DNA of 64,000 nt from Bacteroidia bacterium (GTDB lineage Bacteria; Bacteroidota; Bacteroidia; Chitinophagales; Chitinophagaceae), in NCBI GenBank assembly GCA_030427635.1, contig JAUIBA010000002.1, positions 1 to 64,000 on the forward strand, written 5' to 3'. Of this stretch, positions 32,231 through 35,848 are shown in pieces (the stretch's first letter is position 1; each line of letters opens with the position of its first letter). The translations under genes and the position numbers were made by a program. A model generated the notes under the pieces. The model saw only the letters and a program-made list of their open reading frames with translations. It did no database searches and was not told the DNA's origin.

Positions 32231-33049
32231 TTACTTCCCTTCCATCATCCGCTTCATTTCCATTACATCCATTTCCAGGTCTGCAAGGCGGTGATATACT
32301 TCAGCAGGTTCGCTGAAGTCGCTACTTATTTTCATGCGGCCATACCATACTTCTTTTACATCTTCAGGGTCTATTTCTATAGTGGGGAACTCGTGCCTGT
32401 GTACAACCGTATCTGATTTCAGATAGAGTTTGCCCCGCTCTTTCAGTCTGTTTACTACACGCTTAATAGCTACTCCTCCTTTATGTACCACAATATATAC
32501 GCGGTTGTCGCGTATTTTGTCCAGACTCTCTATCCACTCACCTATCACCCGGTCGCCATGCAGCACATTGGGTGCCATTGATGGCCCTTCCACCTCAAAC
32601 ATTCTGTATGTAGCATTGCTCAGCCCCGGCAGACGGAAGGTAGGCAGCGTTTCTATAAACTCTGCATCGCCAAACCCCAGCAGATAGCCAGCCCGTGCTT
32701 TTACCGGTACATAGATGATGTTATCGTTTCCGCTGCTGTCAACGGTTATGATACGGGGCATACTACTGTAACCCTGCTGCTGCGGAAAGGCTCCACGCAG
32801 CATAAGGTCTTTTTCCATGCTTTTCACATCCTCATCTTCCTGAGCGTTTTCCATGTTCTTTGACAAAAGTTTGTCAAGACTTACGCCAAAATACTTGGCC
32901 AGAGAACGGAGTGTTTCCACATTGGGCTCGCTTATGCCGGCTTCATAGTTGGCTATGGTGGTACGGCCTATACCAATGTCAGAGCTAAGCGCATCCTGCG
33001 TTTTGCCCATTTTCTTTCTCAGAAACTTCAGGTTGTTTGCTAAGTACAT
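32231..33049 (-). CDS. XRE/S24 LexA-like repressor of the Mu-like cassette
   Basis: The 272-residue protein has an N-terminal XRE helix-turn-helix (about 1-60; KTQDALSSDIGIGRTTIANYEAG). A linker leads to a C-terminal S24/LexA peptidase-type domain (about 115-235). The cleavage-type dipeptide Ala120-Gly121 (VKARAGYLLG), Ser157 (EVEGPSMAP) and Lys196 (VAIKRV) supply all parts needed for RecA-stimulated self-cleavage, as in LexA and phage repressors. The last 35 residues look coiled-coil. It is divergent from the MuB-like operon, with GGAAT repeats in between, so it probably represses that operon and releases it after DNA damage (inference). A CAAAGTTA box 6 bases before its start suggests a leaderless transcript. 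Confidence 0.9.
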   Translation of the reverse strand: MYLANNLKFLRKKMGKTQDALSSDIGIGRTTIANYEAGISEPNVETLRSLAKYFGVSLDKLLSKNMENAQEDEDVKSMEKDLMLRGAFPQQQGYSSMPRIITVDSSGNDNIIYVPVKARAGYLLGFGDAEFIETLPTFRLPGLSNATYRMFEVEGPSMAPNVLHGDRVIGEWIESLDKIRDNRVYIVVHKGGVAIKRVVNRLKERGKLYLKSDTVVHRHEFPTIEIDPEDVKEVWYGRMKISSDFSEPAEVYHRLADLEMDVMEMKRMMEGK

Positions 33050-33054
33050 GGCTA

Positions 33055-33062
33055 CAAAGTTA
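33055..33062 (-). promoter_or_regulatory. Candidate -7 element of the repressor gene (leaderless)
   Basis: On the minus strand this reads TAACTTTG, matching the Bacteroidota -7 consensus TAnnTTTG. It ends 6 bases before the repressor ATG at 33049, so transcription would begin at or next to the start codon, as for the leaderless cI message of phage lambda. No TTG was found at the usual distance upstream, so activation may be needed. Confidence 0.45.
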
Positions 33063-33134
33063 GGAATATTTTTCCATAAAATTTGGAATTGACAAAATAA
33101 TTGGAATATCTTTGTGTCGTGATTGATGACAATC
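33063..33134. promoter_or_regulatory. Operator region with GGAAT repeats and a rightward promoter
   Basis: GGAAT recurs at 33063, 33085 and 33103. The first is part of the inverted repeat GGAA-tattt-TTCC (33063-33075). A rightward promoter fits TTTG at 33082-33085, a 21-base spacer and TATCTTTG at 33107-33114, so two repeats overlap the promoter. A second inverted repeat, GATTG-atga-CAATC, spans 33121-33134 at the expected transcription start. These are candidate operators for the divergent XRE/S24 repressor. Confidence 0.5.
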
Positions 33135-33254
33135 GTTCATAAAAATACAAATAACCTGACAATAATGCCAGAATGTTTGTCGGAACACCAAAGAAAAGTA
33201 CTCCCAATAAAGACAGACCCAACCACTATCATAAACACAAAAAACCAGAAGACT

Positions 33255-34109
33255 ATGACACACGAACAGAAAAAACAGGTAAGAGACGCTCTGCTGCGCT
33301 ATGTGAATAACTTCCCCACACAGGCTGCCGCGGCACAGACACTGGACCGCGTGAGCGCATCTACCATATCATTAATAAAAAATCATAACTGGGATTTGCT
33401 CAGCGACAGGTTGTGGCAACATATATCCCGTCAGGTAGGCTTTTACTGTGGCGACTGGCAAACAGCGGATACCAGTGTATATATGCTGATGCGCATTTTG
33501 CTGGGCGATGCACAACGCTACGGAATGGCATATGGCATCACCATGCCGTCCGGAGCAGGCAAAACGTTCAGTGCTGCACACTATGCTCATGCTTATGACA
33601 ATGTATTGTATATAGCCGGGAGAGAACACTATAACCGCAAATCTTTCCTCACAGCGCTGCTGCGTATAGCAGGCTGTGAAGAGCCGGAGCCCACAACACC
33701 GGGAATGCTGCGCCAGCTGTCACAGATAATAACAGAAAAAGATCAGCCGCTGGTGCTGATAGATGACGCCCACTTGCTACGCGACAGAGTATTGCACCTG
33801 GTAGTACTGTTGCTCAACAGTTTGCACAGCTCTGCTGGTATCATCCTGCTGGGCGATGCCCAGCTCCGCATGCGCATAATAGATGGTGTAAGACTAAAGA
33901 AACCGGGATTTGAGGAAATATTTCAGAGCATAGGCAAACGCTTTGTAACAATGAGCAGCATGGCACCATCGGACATTCCTATGCTATGCCGGGCCAATGG
34001 GGTGCATGATGAGGATGTAATAGCATACATATCGGGAGAGTCTGGCAACAATCTGCATACGGCTACCCTGCTCATTAATCAGTATGTGCCACAGCAACAG
34101 GCAGCCTAA
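33255..34109 (+). CDS. MuB-like AAA+ ATPase
   Basis: The 284-residue protein resembles transposition ATPases of the MuB family. An N-terminal helical, HTH-like region (about 1-60; NFPTQAAAAQTLDRVSAST then ISLIKNHNWDLLSDRLW) corresponds to the MuB N-domain. The AAA+ core has Walker A PSGAGKT (98-104), Walker B VLIDDAH (167-173) and a sensor-1-like IILLGDAQLR. MuB loads on target DNA and stimulates MuA; no MuA is encoded here. The ATG at 33255 is preferred because the family homology begins there; an in-frame start at 33126, near the promoter, would add about 43 residues. It is the first gene of a five-gene operon. Confidence 0.8.
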   Translation: MTHEQKKQVRDALLRYVNNFPTQAAAAQTLDRVSASTISLIKNHNWDLLSDRLWQHISRQVGFYCGDWQTADTSVYMLMRILLGDAQRYGMAYGITMPSGAGKTFSAAHYAHAYDNVLYIAGREHYNRKSFLTALLRIAGCEEPEPTTPGMLRQLSQIITEKDQPLVLIDDAHLLRDRVLHLVVLLLNSLHSSAGIILLGDAQLRMRIIDGVRLKKPGFEEIFQSIGKRFVTMSSMAPSDIPMLCRANGVHDEDVIAYISGESGNNLHTATLLINQYVPQQQAA

Positions 34110-34141
34110 CCGTATAACAAAAAAATAAAAACAGATATATT

Positions 34142-34576
34142 ATGCAATACGCAACACTTCCCGCAGCAATGGCTGCAACTCAGGTATCATATGCCAGCTT
34201 TAATACAGGAACGGAAGCCGCAACACAGCCGTTTACTGTGCTGCAATACCCAACCCTGCAGGTAAACCGTACACCGCAGCGCCTGCTGCATGTGATAGCG
34301 CTGGCTCTGGATATGAATCCGGAATGCTATCGTACGCGGTCCCGTGTACGCAGCATTGTAGAGCTGCGCTTTCTGGCCAGTCTGCTGCTGAGGCGCTATT
34401 TTCCTGCGCTTACGCTACAGCAGATAGGCGCTTACTTCGGAGGTCAGGACCATACCTCTGTTATAAACGGCATCAGCAGAGCAAATGAGCTCATTTATGT
34501 GCGGGATGCATCCTTTGTCAAAAAATATAACACCGTAATAAACTCTGTAAACTCATGGCTAAAAAGAGGTGTATAA
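34142..34576 (+). CDS. Stand-alone DnaA domain IV-like DNA-binding protein
   Basis: The 144-residue protein carries, from about residue 45 to 140, a domain like the C-terminal DnaA-box-binding domain of the replication initiator: RSIVELRFLASLLLRRYF, LTLQQIGAYFGGQDHTSV and NGISRANELI. The DHT triplet (103-105), which reads bases in the major groove in DnaA, is intact, while the preceding FGGRD arginine is glutamine (Gln102). No AAA+ domain is present; the neighbouring ATPase gene, 32 bases upstream, could supply one. Residues 1-40 are Ala/Thr-rich and probably disordered. Proteins with this domain occur in some phages and mobile elements. The role here is unknown. Confidence 0.8.
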   Translation: MQYATLPAAMAATQVSYASFNTGTEAATQPFTVLQYPTLQVNRTPQRLLHVIALALDMNPECYRTRSRVRSIVELRFLASLLLRRYFPALTLQQIGAYFGGQDHTSVINGISRANELIYVRDASFVKKYNTVINSVNSWLKRGV

Positions 34577-34872
34577 GATTACGCATAAACCGCCAGCGCG
34601 TAGAGGCCCTTCATGAGATATGCGGGGAAATGCTGGACGACTTCACGCCCGATAATGAACACCGTCAGCTACTGCGGGAGTACATGGTGGAGCTGCGCTA
34701 CAGATTGGAAGAACTCCTGGAGCGCAATCAGGAACTCTACACACTTATGCTGGGCAATACCGAGGCGGTAGCATTTTATCAGCTATGGCAGATGCTGGAT
34801 ATAAGACATGATAAGTATGCACACCTTATAGTAAATGACCTGCTGCGCAAAATGAGCAATCTGGCAGCATAG
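34555..34872 (+). CDS. Unknown helical protein in the Mu-like operon
   Basis: The 105-residue protein begins inside the end of the preceding gene (22-base overlap), which suggests translational coupling. It starts with a basic segment (MAKKRCIRLRINRQRVEAL) and continues with amphipathic helices (EYMVELRYRLEELLERNQELY; MLDIRHDKYAHLIVNDLLRKM). I do not recognise a family. The small size and charge fit a phage early-region accessory protein. Confidence 0.7.
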   Translation: MAKKRCIRLRINRQRVEALHEICGEMLDDFTPDNEHRQLLREYMVELRYRLEELLERNQELYTLMLGNTEAVAFYQLWQMLDIRHDKYAHLIVNDLLRKMSNLAA

Positions 34873-34910
34873 CAAAACAATAAACCCTGAATCATTAAAA
34901 AACAAACAAA

Positions 34911-35411
34911 ATGAAGAAAGCGAAGGAGAAGATAAGTAAGACAAAGTTTGAAGAGGCTGTAGCCCGCTACACAAATGCAATGCAACGGGAGGCCATGATA
35001 AACAGAATGATGGAAGATGAAATAAATGAGATACTGGCAAAACATGAAGAATCATTGCAAACCATAGCAGACGAAAAGAAAAAAGCTTTCGATATGGCAC
35101 ATGCATACTGCACTGCCAATAAGCAGCGGCTTTTTACAAAACGGCGCAGTATAGGGCTTGCTGACGGTATTGCCGGTTTCAGGCTGGGTACGCCTCGGCT
35201 GCGAACAAACTCAGGTAGCGGGTGGCAGGACGTGGTAGGCCGGCTTAAAGAGGTGCTTCCCGGCTATGTGCGCACTACCGAGGAGCCTGCCCGGGACATG
35301 CTGCTGGCAGACAGGAACAAGCCAGATGTAGCGCCACTGCTGGTGCAGCTGGGCCTGCAGGTAGTACAGGACGACCTTTTCTATATACAGCCGCATAAAG
35401 CGGCAGCATAA
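34911..35411 (+). CDS. Gam-like host-nuclease inhibitor
   Basis: The 166-residue protein has the layout of phage Mu Gam-family DNA-end-binding proteins. A long N-terminal coiled-coil-like helix contains AMINRMMEDEINEILAKHEESLQ and then AYCTANKQRLF. A beta-region follows (GIAGFRLGTPRLR), then a helical segment with DVVGRLKEVLPGYVRTTEEPARDMLLADR, and the closing VVQDDLFYIQP. Gam protects linear DNA ends from RecBCD-type nucleases and is a Ku homologue. Here it is encoded downstream of MuB-like and DnaA-IV-like genes with no transposase. The assignment rests on pattern and context. Confidence 0.75.
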   Translation: MKKAKEKISKTKFEEAVARYTNAMQREAMINRMMEDEINEILAKHEESLQTIADEKKKAFDMAHAYCTANKQRLFTKRRSIGLADGIAGFRLGTPRLRTNSGSGWQDVVGRLKEVLPGYVRTTEEPARDMLLADRNKPDVAPLLVQLGLQVVQDDLFYIQPHKAAA

Positions 35412-35440
35412 TAAAACATAACTAACCAAAAACAACCAAC

Positions 35441-35659
35441 ATGCAACAGGATTATACAGAGTTTCTGCACACGGGCAATGAAGTGCCACCGGCTGTTTAC
35501 CATGCTATTCCCAAACGCACGACTACCCGCAGACAAAATAAACATGACATGCTGCTGACCTTTATCACTTATGCTAATACCCCTGGCCGTAAACGAAAAC
35601 GATATGTAGCCCCTGTATTGCAGCCTGTCATGCGCGCTCTGAGATTCCTGTTTCTGTAA
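35441..35659 (+). CDS. Small basic protein at the end of the Mu-like operon
   Basis: The 72-residue protein is rich in Arg, Lys and Thr (IPKRTTTRRQNKHDM; GRKRKRYVAPVLQPVMRALRF). I do not recognise a family. It is taken as real because its ATG follows an ACCAAAAACAACCAAC leader resembling the AC-rich leaders of the other genes in this operon, and because a hairpin follows. The charge suggests DNA or RNA binding. Confidence 0.55.
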   Translation: MQQDYTEFLHTGNEVPPAVYHAIPKRTTTRRQNKHDMLLTFITYANTPGRKRKRYVAPVLQPVMRALRFLFL

Positions 35660-35677
35660 ACAATTACCTGTACCCTT

Positions 35678-35708
35678 ATCCTGCTGCCCCGCTGTCGGGC
35701 GGCAGGAT
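35678..35708 (+). terminator. Hairpin ending the Mu-like operon
   Basis: Arms ATCCTGCTGCCC and GGGCGGCAGGAT pair over 12 positions with one T-G wobble around a 7-base loop, 18 bases after the stop codon at 35659. No strong T-run follows, so termination may be partial. Confidence 0.6.
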
Positions 35709-35848
35709 ATTATGTTTCTGGAATGTTAGAAAATCAAGATGTATAATCAATCGCAAAACCGGGTCCGGTAATATTGTAACAAAATCTCTCTGAAGATAAA
35801 AATGCAAAAAGGAAATATCACATAATACGCTTATTATCAATAAAATAA

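What the first reader, a model, noticed from the sequence alone, without database searches (positions are those of the whole stretch)
32231..35708. Mu-like early-region cassette with no transposase
An XRE/S24 repressor faces an operon encoding a MuB-like ATPase, a DnaA domain IV-like protein, an unknown helical protein, a Gam-like DNA-end protector and a small basic protein. All reading frames look intact and the control region is elaborate, but no MuA, lysis or virion gene is present; on both sides lie ordinary host genes. The Mu-type functions that remain (repression, ATP-driven DNA coating, end protection) together with a DnaA-type DNA reader suggest either a recent deletion remnant or a domesticated DNA-handling system that responds to DNA damage. 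Seen: gene order, motifs, absence of other phage genes. Known: roles of MuB, Gam and LexA-like repressors. Inferred: that they work together here.
Basis: partly seen in the sequence, partly recalled or inferred. Interest (0 to 1): 0.75.

Follow-up and report, generated by a model that had tools for sequence, protein, structure and literature searches.

The report
Control cassette of domesticated Mu-like particle
This small gene cluster looks like the control switch of a tame, virus-like particle whose shell, tail and DNA-packing genes sit elsewhere on the same chromosome and have been kept in related bacteria, so these bacteria may make their own DNA-carrying particles.

Summary
The cassette is real: an XRE/S24 repressor facing MuB, a DnaA domain IV-only protein, an unknown protein, Gam and a small basic protein. 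It is not a lone remnant. The same contig holds, without MuA, a near-complete Mu-like virion gene set split among host genes: tail, capsid and protease at C33:107-120 kb, portal, adaptor and terminase at 137-143 kb. Relatives keep the split set under purifying selection; of 21 cassette genomes 18 carry the matching capsid and 16 show no MuA match. Cassette and virion gene distances agree. Perfect DnaA boxes are enriched before virion genes; the DnaA-like protein folds like a DnaA-box reader. Best reading: early/control module of a gene-transfer-agent-like element derived from a Mu-like phage, seen here in one Bacteroidota family only. The circuit parallels Caulobacter/Rhodobacter GTAs. Packaging of host DNA is inferred, not shown. 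Three cassette genomes lack the virion genes, and eight genomes of another genus carry a reduced cassette with no match to my virion probes, so another role is possible there.

The parts
32231..33049 (-). XRE/S24 (LexA/CI-like) repressor, 272 aa; predicted cleavage site A120-G121, catalytic S157 and K196 (motifs recalled from LexA/CI)
   Evidence: these residues are kept in 21 of 21 cassette homologues
33050..33254 (.). divergent control region with a conserved TTCC-n-GGA element before a TAnnTTTG-type -7 box; GGAATATTTTTCC at 33063-33075 in this genome
   Evidence: upstream sequences of 17 genomes read side by side; TTTTTCCACAAAATTTGGA is exact in 8 of 20 genomes, variants in others, pattern not found in 6; binding by the S24 protein is inferred
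33255..34109 (+). MuB-like AAA+ ATPase, 284 aa (start by homology; a longer ORF opens at 33123)
   Evidence: phrog_296 6e-34, AAA_22 6e-13; Mu B C-terminal domain only 14 bits against a cut-off of 25
34142..34576 (+). DnaA domain IV-only protein, 144 aa, proposed activator that reads DnaA boxes
   Evidence: Bac_DnaA_C 1e-11; AlphaFold2 model matches DnaA-DBD:DnaA-box structures 3pvp and 1j1v; GGQDHTSV aligned to GGRDHTTV
34555..34872 (+). unknown 105-aa protein (hel4), predicted strand-helix-helix twice
   Evidence: 19 sequences aligned; model pLDDT 74.5; no structural match
34911..35411 (+). Mu Gam-like DNA-end binding protein, 166 aa
   Evidence: PF07352 5e-24, phrog_491 8e-23
35441..35659 (+). 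small basic protein, 72 aa, weakly conserved
   Evidence: phmmer hits in 16 of the 53 stretches scanned, the window and two duplicated genomes counted; no family
35677..35709 (+). hairpin after the last gene, likely end of the operon transcript
   Evidence: 13-pair hairpin, -24.6 kcal/mol

Best explanation
The cassette is the early/control module of a gene-transfer-agent-like element domesticated from a Mu-like contractile-tailed phage. The rest of the element lies in separate chromosomal blocks: tail, capsid and protease (C33:107118-119840), portal, adaptor and terminase (C33:137248-142533) and a small conserved gene, regC (C33:177377-177682). Proposed working: DNA damage makes the S24 repressor cleave itself; the operon opens; the DnaA domain IV protein binds DnaA boxes upstream of the virion operons and helps switch them on; procapsids form and terminase packs chromosomal DNA by the headful; Gam shields DNA ends from host exonucleases and MuB coats DNA; an endolysin releases particles. 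Shown here: gene content, dispersal, loss of MuA, purifying selection, shared history of cassette and virion genes, box enrichment. Inferred: every binding, packaging and transfer step.
For: Virion set on the same contig. Same split set in relatives at varying distances. 18 of 21 cassette genomes have the GTA-type capsid and 18 of 21 a Mu-like portal; Fisher 8e-24 and 5e-15 over 394 genomes, not corrected for kinship. 16 of 21 cassette genomes have no MuA match anywhere. MuA, one phage ATPase, MuF and gpG: 0 of 76 element stretches, against 6, 11, 12 and 13 of 16 phage stretches. Low dN/dS. Distance matrices agree in 23 of 25 cassette-virion gene pairs. TerL acidic residues invariant in 17 aligned sequences. 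DnaA box TTATCCACA in 12 of 48 upstream regions of protease, TerS and regC against 15 of 585 control regions, p 7e-8; the two top 8-mers of an unbiased ranking are pieces of this box. Same-genome similarity of block A and B promoters above all 300 shuffles in 5 of 9 genomes. DnaA-box-binding fold. Known GTAs use an S24-type repressor over a DnaA-like activator (passages).
Against: No experiment shows particles or packaged host DNA. Three cassette genomes (G196, G324, G349) lack capsid, portal and TerL. Eight genomes of genus g72 carry a reduced cassette and match none of the three probes; but the probes also find nothing in G253 of that genus, which has MuA, MuB and Gam together, so absence there is not proven. 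Broken frames exist: TerL with an in-frame stop in G176 and G079, protease and sheath each in two frames in G069, capsid in two in G299, MuB in two in L036. In the window's own genome the box is found only before regC, not before the two virion blocks. G062 and G171 show no shared promoter element, G000 and G262 a marginal one. The MuA probes are not fully sensitive: the single-query search missed L064 and L084, which hold family-9 MuA, and G262 has a phage-type cluster with MuF and gpG but no MuA match. MuB without MuA has no known job. The capsid tree is poorly resolved at depth, and G089 falls outside its genus.
Confidence: 0.72

Rival explanations
1. Host-kept DNA-handling or DNA-repair cassette (S24-controlled Gam plus DNA binders) that works without particles; the virion blocks are a separate domesticated element that merely shares ancestry.
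For: Cassettes persist without capsid, portal or TerL in G196, G324 and G349. A reduced S24, DnaA-like and Gam form sits at a shared site in eight g72 genomes with no match to the virion probes.
Against: 18 of 21 type-1 cassette genomes carry the virion set; cassette and virion genes share history; DnaA boxes sit before virion genes; the probes may be blind in g72 (G253).
Confidence: 0.13
2. Decaying Mu-like prophage broken up by rearrangement, on the way to loss.
For: Blocks lie apart among host genes; some phage genes are gone; broken frames in TerL of G176 and G079, protease and sheath of G069, capsid of G299.
Against: dN/dS 0.010-0.146 where dS is below 1; no in-frame stop in any of the 23 GTA-type capsids, 22 of them in one piece; the same four genes are missing in the stretches checked.
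Confidence: 0.06
3. Domesticated contractile tail device (tailocin-like) that injects or kills and carries no DNA; head genes are passengers.
For: Sheath, tube, baseplate and endolysin genes are kept.
Against: Capsid is highly conserved (81% mean column identity over 16 sequences), its one pair with dS below 1 has dN/dS 0.010, and TerL acidic residues are invariant.
Confidence: 0.04
4. Still-active phage whose blocks are mobilised in trans by a resident MuA.
For: The window's genome and four other cassette genomes have a MuA match elsewhere, one of them weak and partial.
Against: 16 of 21 cassette genomes have none; blocks are dispersed and mostly track host genera.
Confidence: 0.05

Closest known systems
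Caulobacter crescentus GTA (CcGTA: RogA, GafY, GafZ)
   Same: S24/LexA-like repressor shuts an operon with an activator similar to the DnaA-like part of GafA, which switches on virion genes; peripheral loci (PMC9632790 and PMC11150451, passages seen)
   Different: RogA is reported to lack the autopeptidase residues, whereas the repressor here keeps cleavage site, Ser and Lys; here Gam and MuB are in the operon; Mu-like portal and a tail sheath; other phylum
Rhodobacter capsulatus RcGTA and its activator GafA
   Same: DnaA-like DNA-binding domain needed for activation; binding reported 75-125 bases before TerS (PMC9638019, passages); here boxes at -118, -119, -118 and -163 before TerS
   Different: GafA also has a sigma-like C-terminal part; the protein here is domain IV plus a short N-terminal stretch of low model confidence
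Mu-like prophage at C37:104-142 kb of the same genome
   Same: Best segments: S24 50%, DnaA-like 43%, capsid 61%, portal 47%, TerL 47% identity; divergent TerS/protease arrangement
   Different: One contiguous element with MuA, MuF, gpG and a second ATPase; no TTWTCCACA in the 200 bases before its protease gene
Porphyromonas Mu-like phages (phage012a and relatives)
   Same: Closest capsid among 50,697 phage records, 48% identity; 'Mu-like' is recalled, not from the call
   Different: Deposited as single 33-35 kb phage records

Membership tests
Gene transfer agent | Tailed-phage structural and packaging genes in the host chromosome | tested here: met
Gene transfer agent | Genes in several separate loci (stated in PMC12946183, passage) | tested here: met
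   at least three blocks over 145 kb in the window's genome, distances vary in relatives
Gene transfer agent | No machinery for autonomous replication (stated in PMC12946183, passage) | tested here: met
   MuA 0 of 76 element stretches and no MuA match in 16 of 21 genomes; MuB is kept; probes not fully sensitive
Gene transfer agent | Evolves with the host genome (vertical, purifying selection) | tested here: met
   no host marker tree was built, genus labels only
Gene transfer agent | Particles pack host DNA and at best part of their own genes | not testable with these tools
   needs particle DNA sequencing
Gene transfer agent | Transfer of genes to recipient cells | not testable with these tools
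   needs culture
Mu-like transposable phage | MuA DDE transposase with the early region | tested here: not met
Mu-like transposable phage | One contiguous element with defined ends | tested here: not met
   blocks separated by host genes; ends and target duplications not searched
Mu Gam family | PF07352 above cut-off | tested here: met
   85.4 bits against 28.3
MuB family | AAA+ core plus Mu B C-terminal domain | tested here: inconclusive
   phrog_296 6e-34; PF09077 14 bits against 25
DnaA domain IV DNA-binding fold | Fold and signature of the DnaA-box reader | tested here: met
   binding itself not tested
GafA/GafY activators | Homology to GafA/GafY, not only to DnaA | not tested
   no GafY or GafA sequence was compared
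RogA-type GTA repressor | LexA-like fold lacking autopeptidase residues | tested here: not met
   residues present in 21 of 21

The most novel reading that the evidence does not exclude
A new, independently domesticated lineage of gene transfer agents, made from a Mu-like contractile-tailed phage, seen here in one Bacteroidota family only, dispersed over the chromosome and controlled by the same logic as alphaproteobacterial GTAs (S24 repressor over a DnaA-domain activator that reads DnaA boxes about 100-160 bases before virion genes), but with a repressor that can still cleave itself, so that production would follow DNA damage, and with Gam and MuB kept as DNA-handling helpers for packaging.
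Probability: 0.5. Interest if true: 0.92.

Novelty: new variant of a known kind. Interest (0 to 1): 0.85.

Why it matters
If right, it adds a GTA lineage from another phylum and from a transposable, contractile-tailed ancestor. It would show that unrelated GTAs end up under the same control logic, and would give these bacteria a dedicated gene-transfer device. It also warns that virus catalogues hold pieces of such host elements as viruses: all 16 IMG/VR contigs of the search with capsid identity of 73% or more carry block A genes (two also block B) and no MuA, MuF or gpG match. It turns the question of what selects for GTAs into a testable one outside Alphaproteobacteria.

Tried and rejected
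Recent deletion remnant: rejected by dN/dS and by the same cassette in 20 other genomes. Shared motif GTTC(C)GGTGTG upstream of blocks A and B in the window's genome: found only there, dropped. Mu-transpos_C (PF09299) as a MuA probe: rang nowhere, not even in controls, so replaced by an alignment of ten MuA proteins. Close relatives of the MuB protein in viral contigs: none. Fold search with the unknown protein: nothing. GTA-type capsid in a 395-genome phylum sample: apart from the window's own genome none above 48% identity. Papers on a Mu-like or Bacteroidota GTA: searches showed none in what was listed (12 of 28 papers, 15 of 84); the library holds only part of the literature. TTTTCCACA before the MuB gene (TTWTCCACA in 13 of 20 genomes) is not used as DnaA evidence, since it overlaps the likely repressor operator.

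Rows dropped before counts: one search left out upstream regions under 230 bases and the G069 protease fragment; one search left out capsid rows of G105 and G299 and protease rows of G105 and G069; searches used upstream regions of 290 bases or more. The 48 promoters come from related genomes and are not independent. The Fisher values ignore kinship. Of 62 IMG/VR loci only the first 20 were annotated.
Full report
1. The observation. A strong hairpin closes the operon. The genome is a 4.25-Mb draft in 49 contigs; the window is the start of contig C33. Named records with related MuB genes are a Taibaiella, a Flavipsychrobacter, a Sphingobacteriales and uncultured Bacteroidetes.

2. It is conserved without a transposase. 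In 394 genomes of the family, 45 have a Gam match. Around these, 21 genomes (the window's included) carry the same cassette order next to a closely similar S24 repressor, with no MuA between (MuB missing in G392, no hel4 hit in G299 and G324). The flanking genes fall into at least three contexts that are each shared by several genomes, and others seen once, so the cassette is old, mostly inherited in place, and has moved a few times. Genomes with a true Mu-like prophage have a family-9 protein (MuA; full-length ones 609-694 aa) next to MuB; ten aligned members keep D344, D372 and E451 invariant, and one matches Mu-transpos_C above cut-off.

3. The missing virion is elsewhere on the chromosome. 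Mu-like portals occur in 9 of 9 genomes of the genus in the sample. The window's genome has two: one in a complete-looking Mu-like prophage on C37, one on C33, 102 kb from the cassette. Comparing C33 frames with the prophage proteins gave two blocks among host genes. Block A, C33:107118-119840: fibre, baseplate, hubs, tape measure, tube, sheath, endolysin, capsid, protease. Block B, C33:137248-142533: gp37-like, portal, head-tail adaptor, TerL, TerS-like (some names come from position and homology to the prophage, not from a family hit). A third gene, regC (C33:177377-177682), matches a prophage gene. MuA is not there.

4. The split set is shared. The block B order gp37-portal-adaptor-(x183)-TerL-TerS recurs, and regC lies beside gp37 in six stretches. 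The block A order recurs in the stretches fetched. In G222, G373, G296, G166, G033, G092 and G392 blocks A and B are close and divergent, as in the prophage; in G000, G171 and G266 they are 17 to 128 kb apart. The capsid is 68-83% identical in 22 other genomes; all other capsids of the same search are 62% or less. In IMG/VR all 16 contigs at 73% or more carry block A genes and no MuA, MuF or gpG match; of the four next ones looked at (57-60%) two carry MuF. MuA, one ATPase, MuF and gpG gave no match in 76 element stretches, against 6, 11, 12 and 13 of 16 phage stretches; this single-query search missed at least two known MuA genes (L064, L084), so the whole-genome profile search is the better test.

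5. Cassette and virion belong together. Of 21 cassette genomes 18 have the capsid and 18 a portal. Distances between genomes agree for 23 of 25 cassette-virion gene pairs (r 0.42-0.87, at most 4 of 5000 permutations as high); gp37 with hel4 and with Gam do not. Trees of S24, capsid and portal mostly group rows by genus; exceptions are G089, outside its genus in capsid and portal trees, and g6, which lies inside an unresolved g1 group in the S24 tree. Selection: where dS is below 1, dN/dS is 0.014-0.063 for S24, 0.054 and 0.146 for MuB, 0.021 and 0.066 for the DnaA-like protein, 0.012 and 0.032 for hel4, 0.073 and 0.090 for Gam, 0.078 for protease and 0.010 for capsid.

6. Wiring. Upstream regions of blocks A and B of the same genome share a species-specific element, an inverted repeat in several, in 5 of 9 genomes, above all 300 shuffles; G000 and G262 are marginal (8 and 7 of 300), G062 and G171 negative; pairing within genomes beats 20,000 permutations. 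The perfect DnaA box TTATCCACA occurs in 12 of 48 upstream regions of protease (3 of 22), TerS (4 of 16) and regC (5 of 10) against 15 of 585 control regions; scrambled 9-mers reach at most 4 of 48; in an unbiased ranking of 8-mers the two best are pieces of this box. Boxes sit at -102 to -103 before protease, -118 to -163 before TerS and -78 to -154 before regC. None lies in the 200 bases before the protease of the five prophage-type loci read. In the window's own genome only regC has the box. The cassette's DnaA-like protein has the DnaA-box-binding fold. So the cassette encodes a plausible reader of the virion promoters; host DnaA or the S24 protein could also read them.

7. Comparison with the known. 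Passages of three papers report that the Caulobacter GTA is held by RogA, an HTH-S24 protein lacking autopeptidase residues, which represses gafYZ; that GafY resembles the N-terminal part of GafA; and that GafA's N-terminal part is DnaA-like and likely the part essential for activating GTA promoters. The same order of control is proposed here, on a different phage chassis and in another phylum. The repressor here keeps the Ala-Gly site, Ser and Lys in 21 of 21, so induction by DNA damage is predicted. Whether this is convergence or a circuit inherited from phages cannot be told; the Mu-like prophage also has an S24 and a DnaA-like gene.

8. What does not fit. G196, G324 and G349 have the cassette but no capsid, portal or TerL. 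Eight genomes of genus g72 have a reduced form, S24, DnaA-like and Gam, and match none of the three probes; yet G253 of that genus has MuA, MuB and Gam together and matches none either, so the probes may be blind there. Either these genomes lost the particle, or it is too diverged to see, or the cassette has a second use. G371 and G144, both incomplete, have the capsid but no TerL match. Broken frames occur in TerL of G176 and G079, protease and sheath of G069, capsid of G299 and MuB of L036. G262 has a phage-type cluster with MuF and gpG but no MuA match. Nothing here shows particle production.

Noticed in passing
G000:C37, about 104-142 kb (L117, L118): A complete-looking Mu-like prophage with MuA of 735 aa, MuF, gpG, capsid, contractile tail and fibre genes in the same genome.
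   Followed up: partly
L052, L056, L060, L063, L066, L067, L074, L075 (genus g72): S24, DnaA-like and Gam cassette without MuB or MuA between, at a shared chromosomal site: a reduced form with unknown role.
   Followed up: partly
IMG/VR contigs L225-L240: Contigs listed as viral that carry block A (two also block B) genes of this element; likely host elements filed as viruses.
   Followed up: partly
L041:8717-9007, L042, L044, L053, L065, L072, L080 and others: A DUF4406 gene of about 96 aa lies just after the cassette in several relatives and after Gam in some Mu-like prophages; no such gene after the cassette in the window.
   Followed up: no
G000:C1:178196-178408 (L215): A fourth DnaA domain IV protein (97 aa) among genes that look like another prophage early region.
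   Followed up: no
G000:C33:139864-140415: x183, a protein with an apparent signal peptide, sits between adaptor and terminase in block B of most relatives but not in the C37 prophage.
   Followed up: no
L072 (G262) and L077 (G392): MuB is only 26% identical between G262 and G166 and is missing in G392 while the rest of the cassette is conserved.
   Followed up: no
L040 (G097): A same-genus genome with a compact form: S24, hel4-like and Gam beside terminase, portal, capsid and protease genes, no MuA match in the genome.
   Followed up: partly
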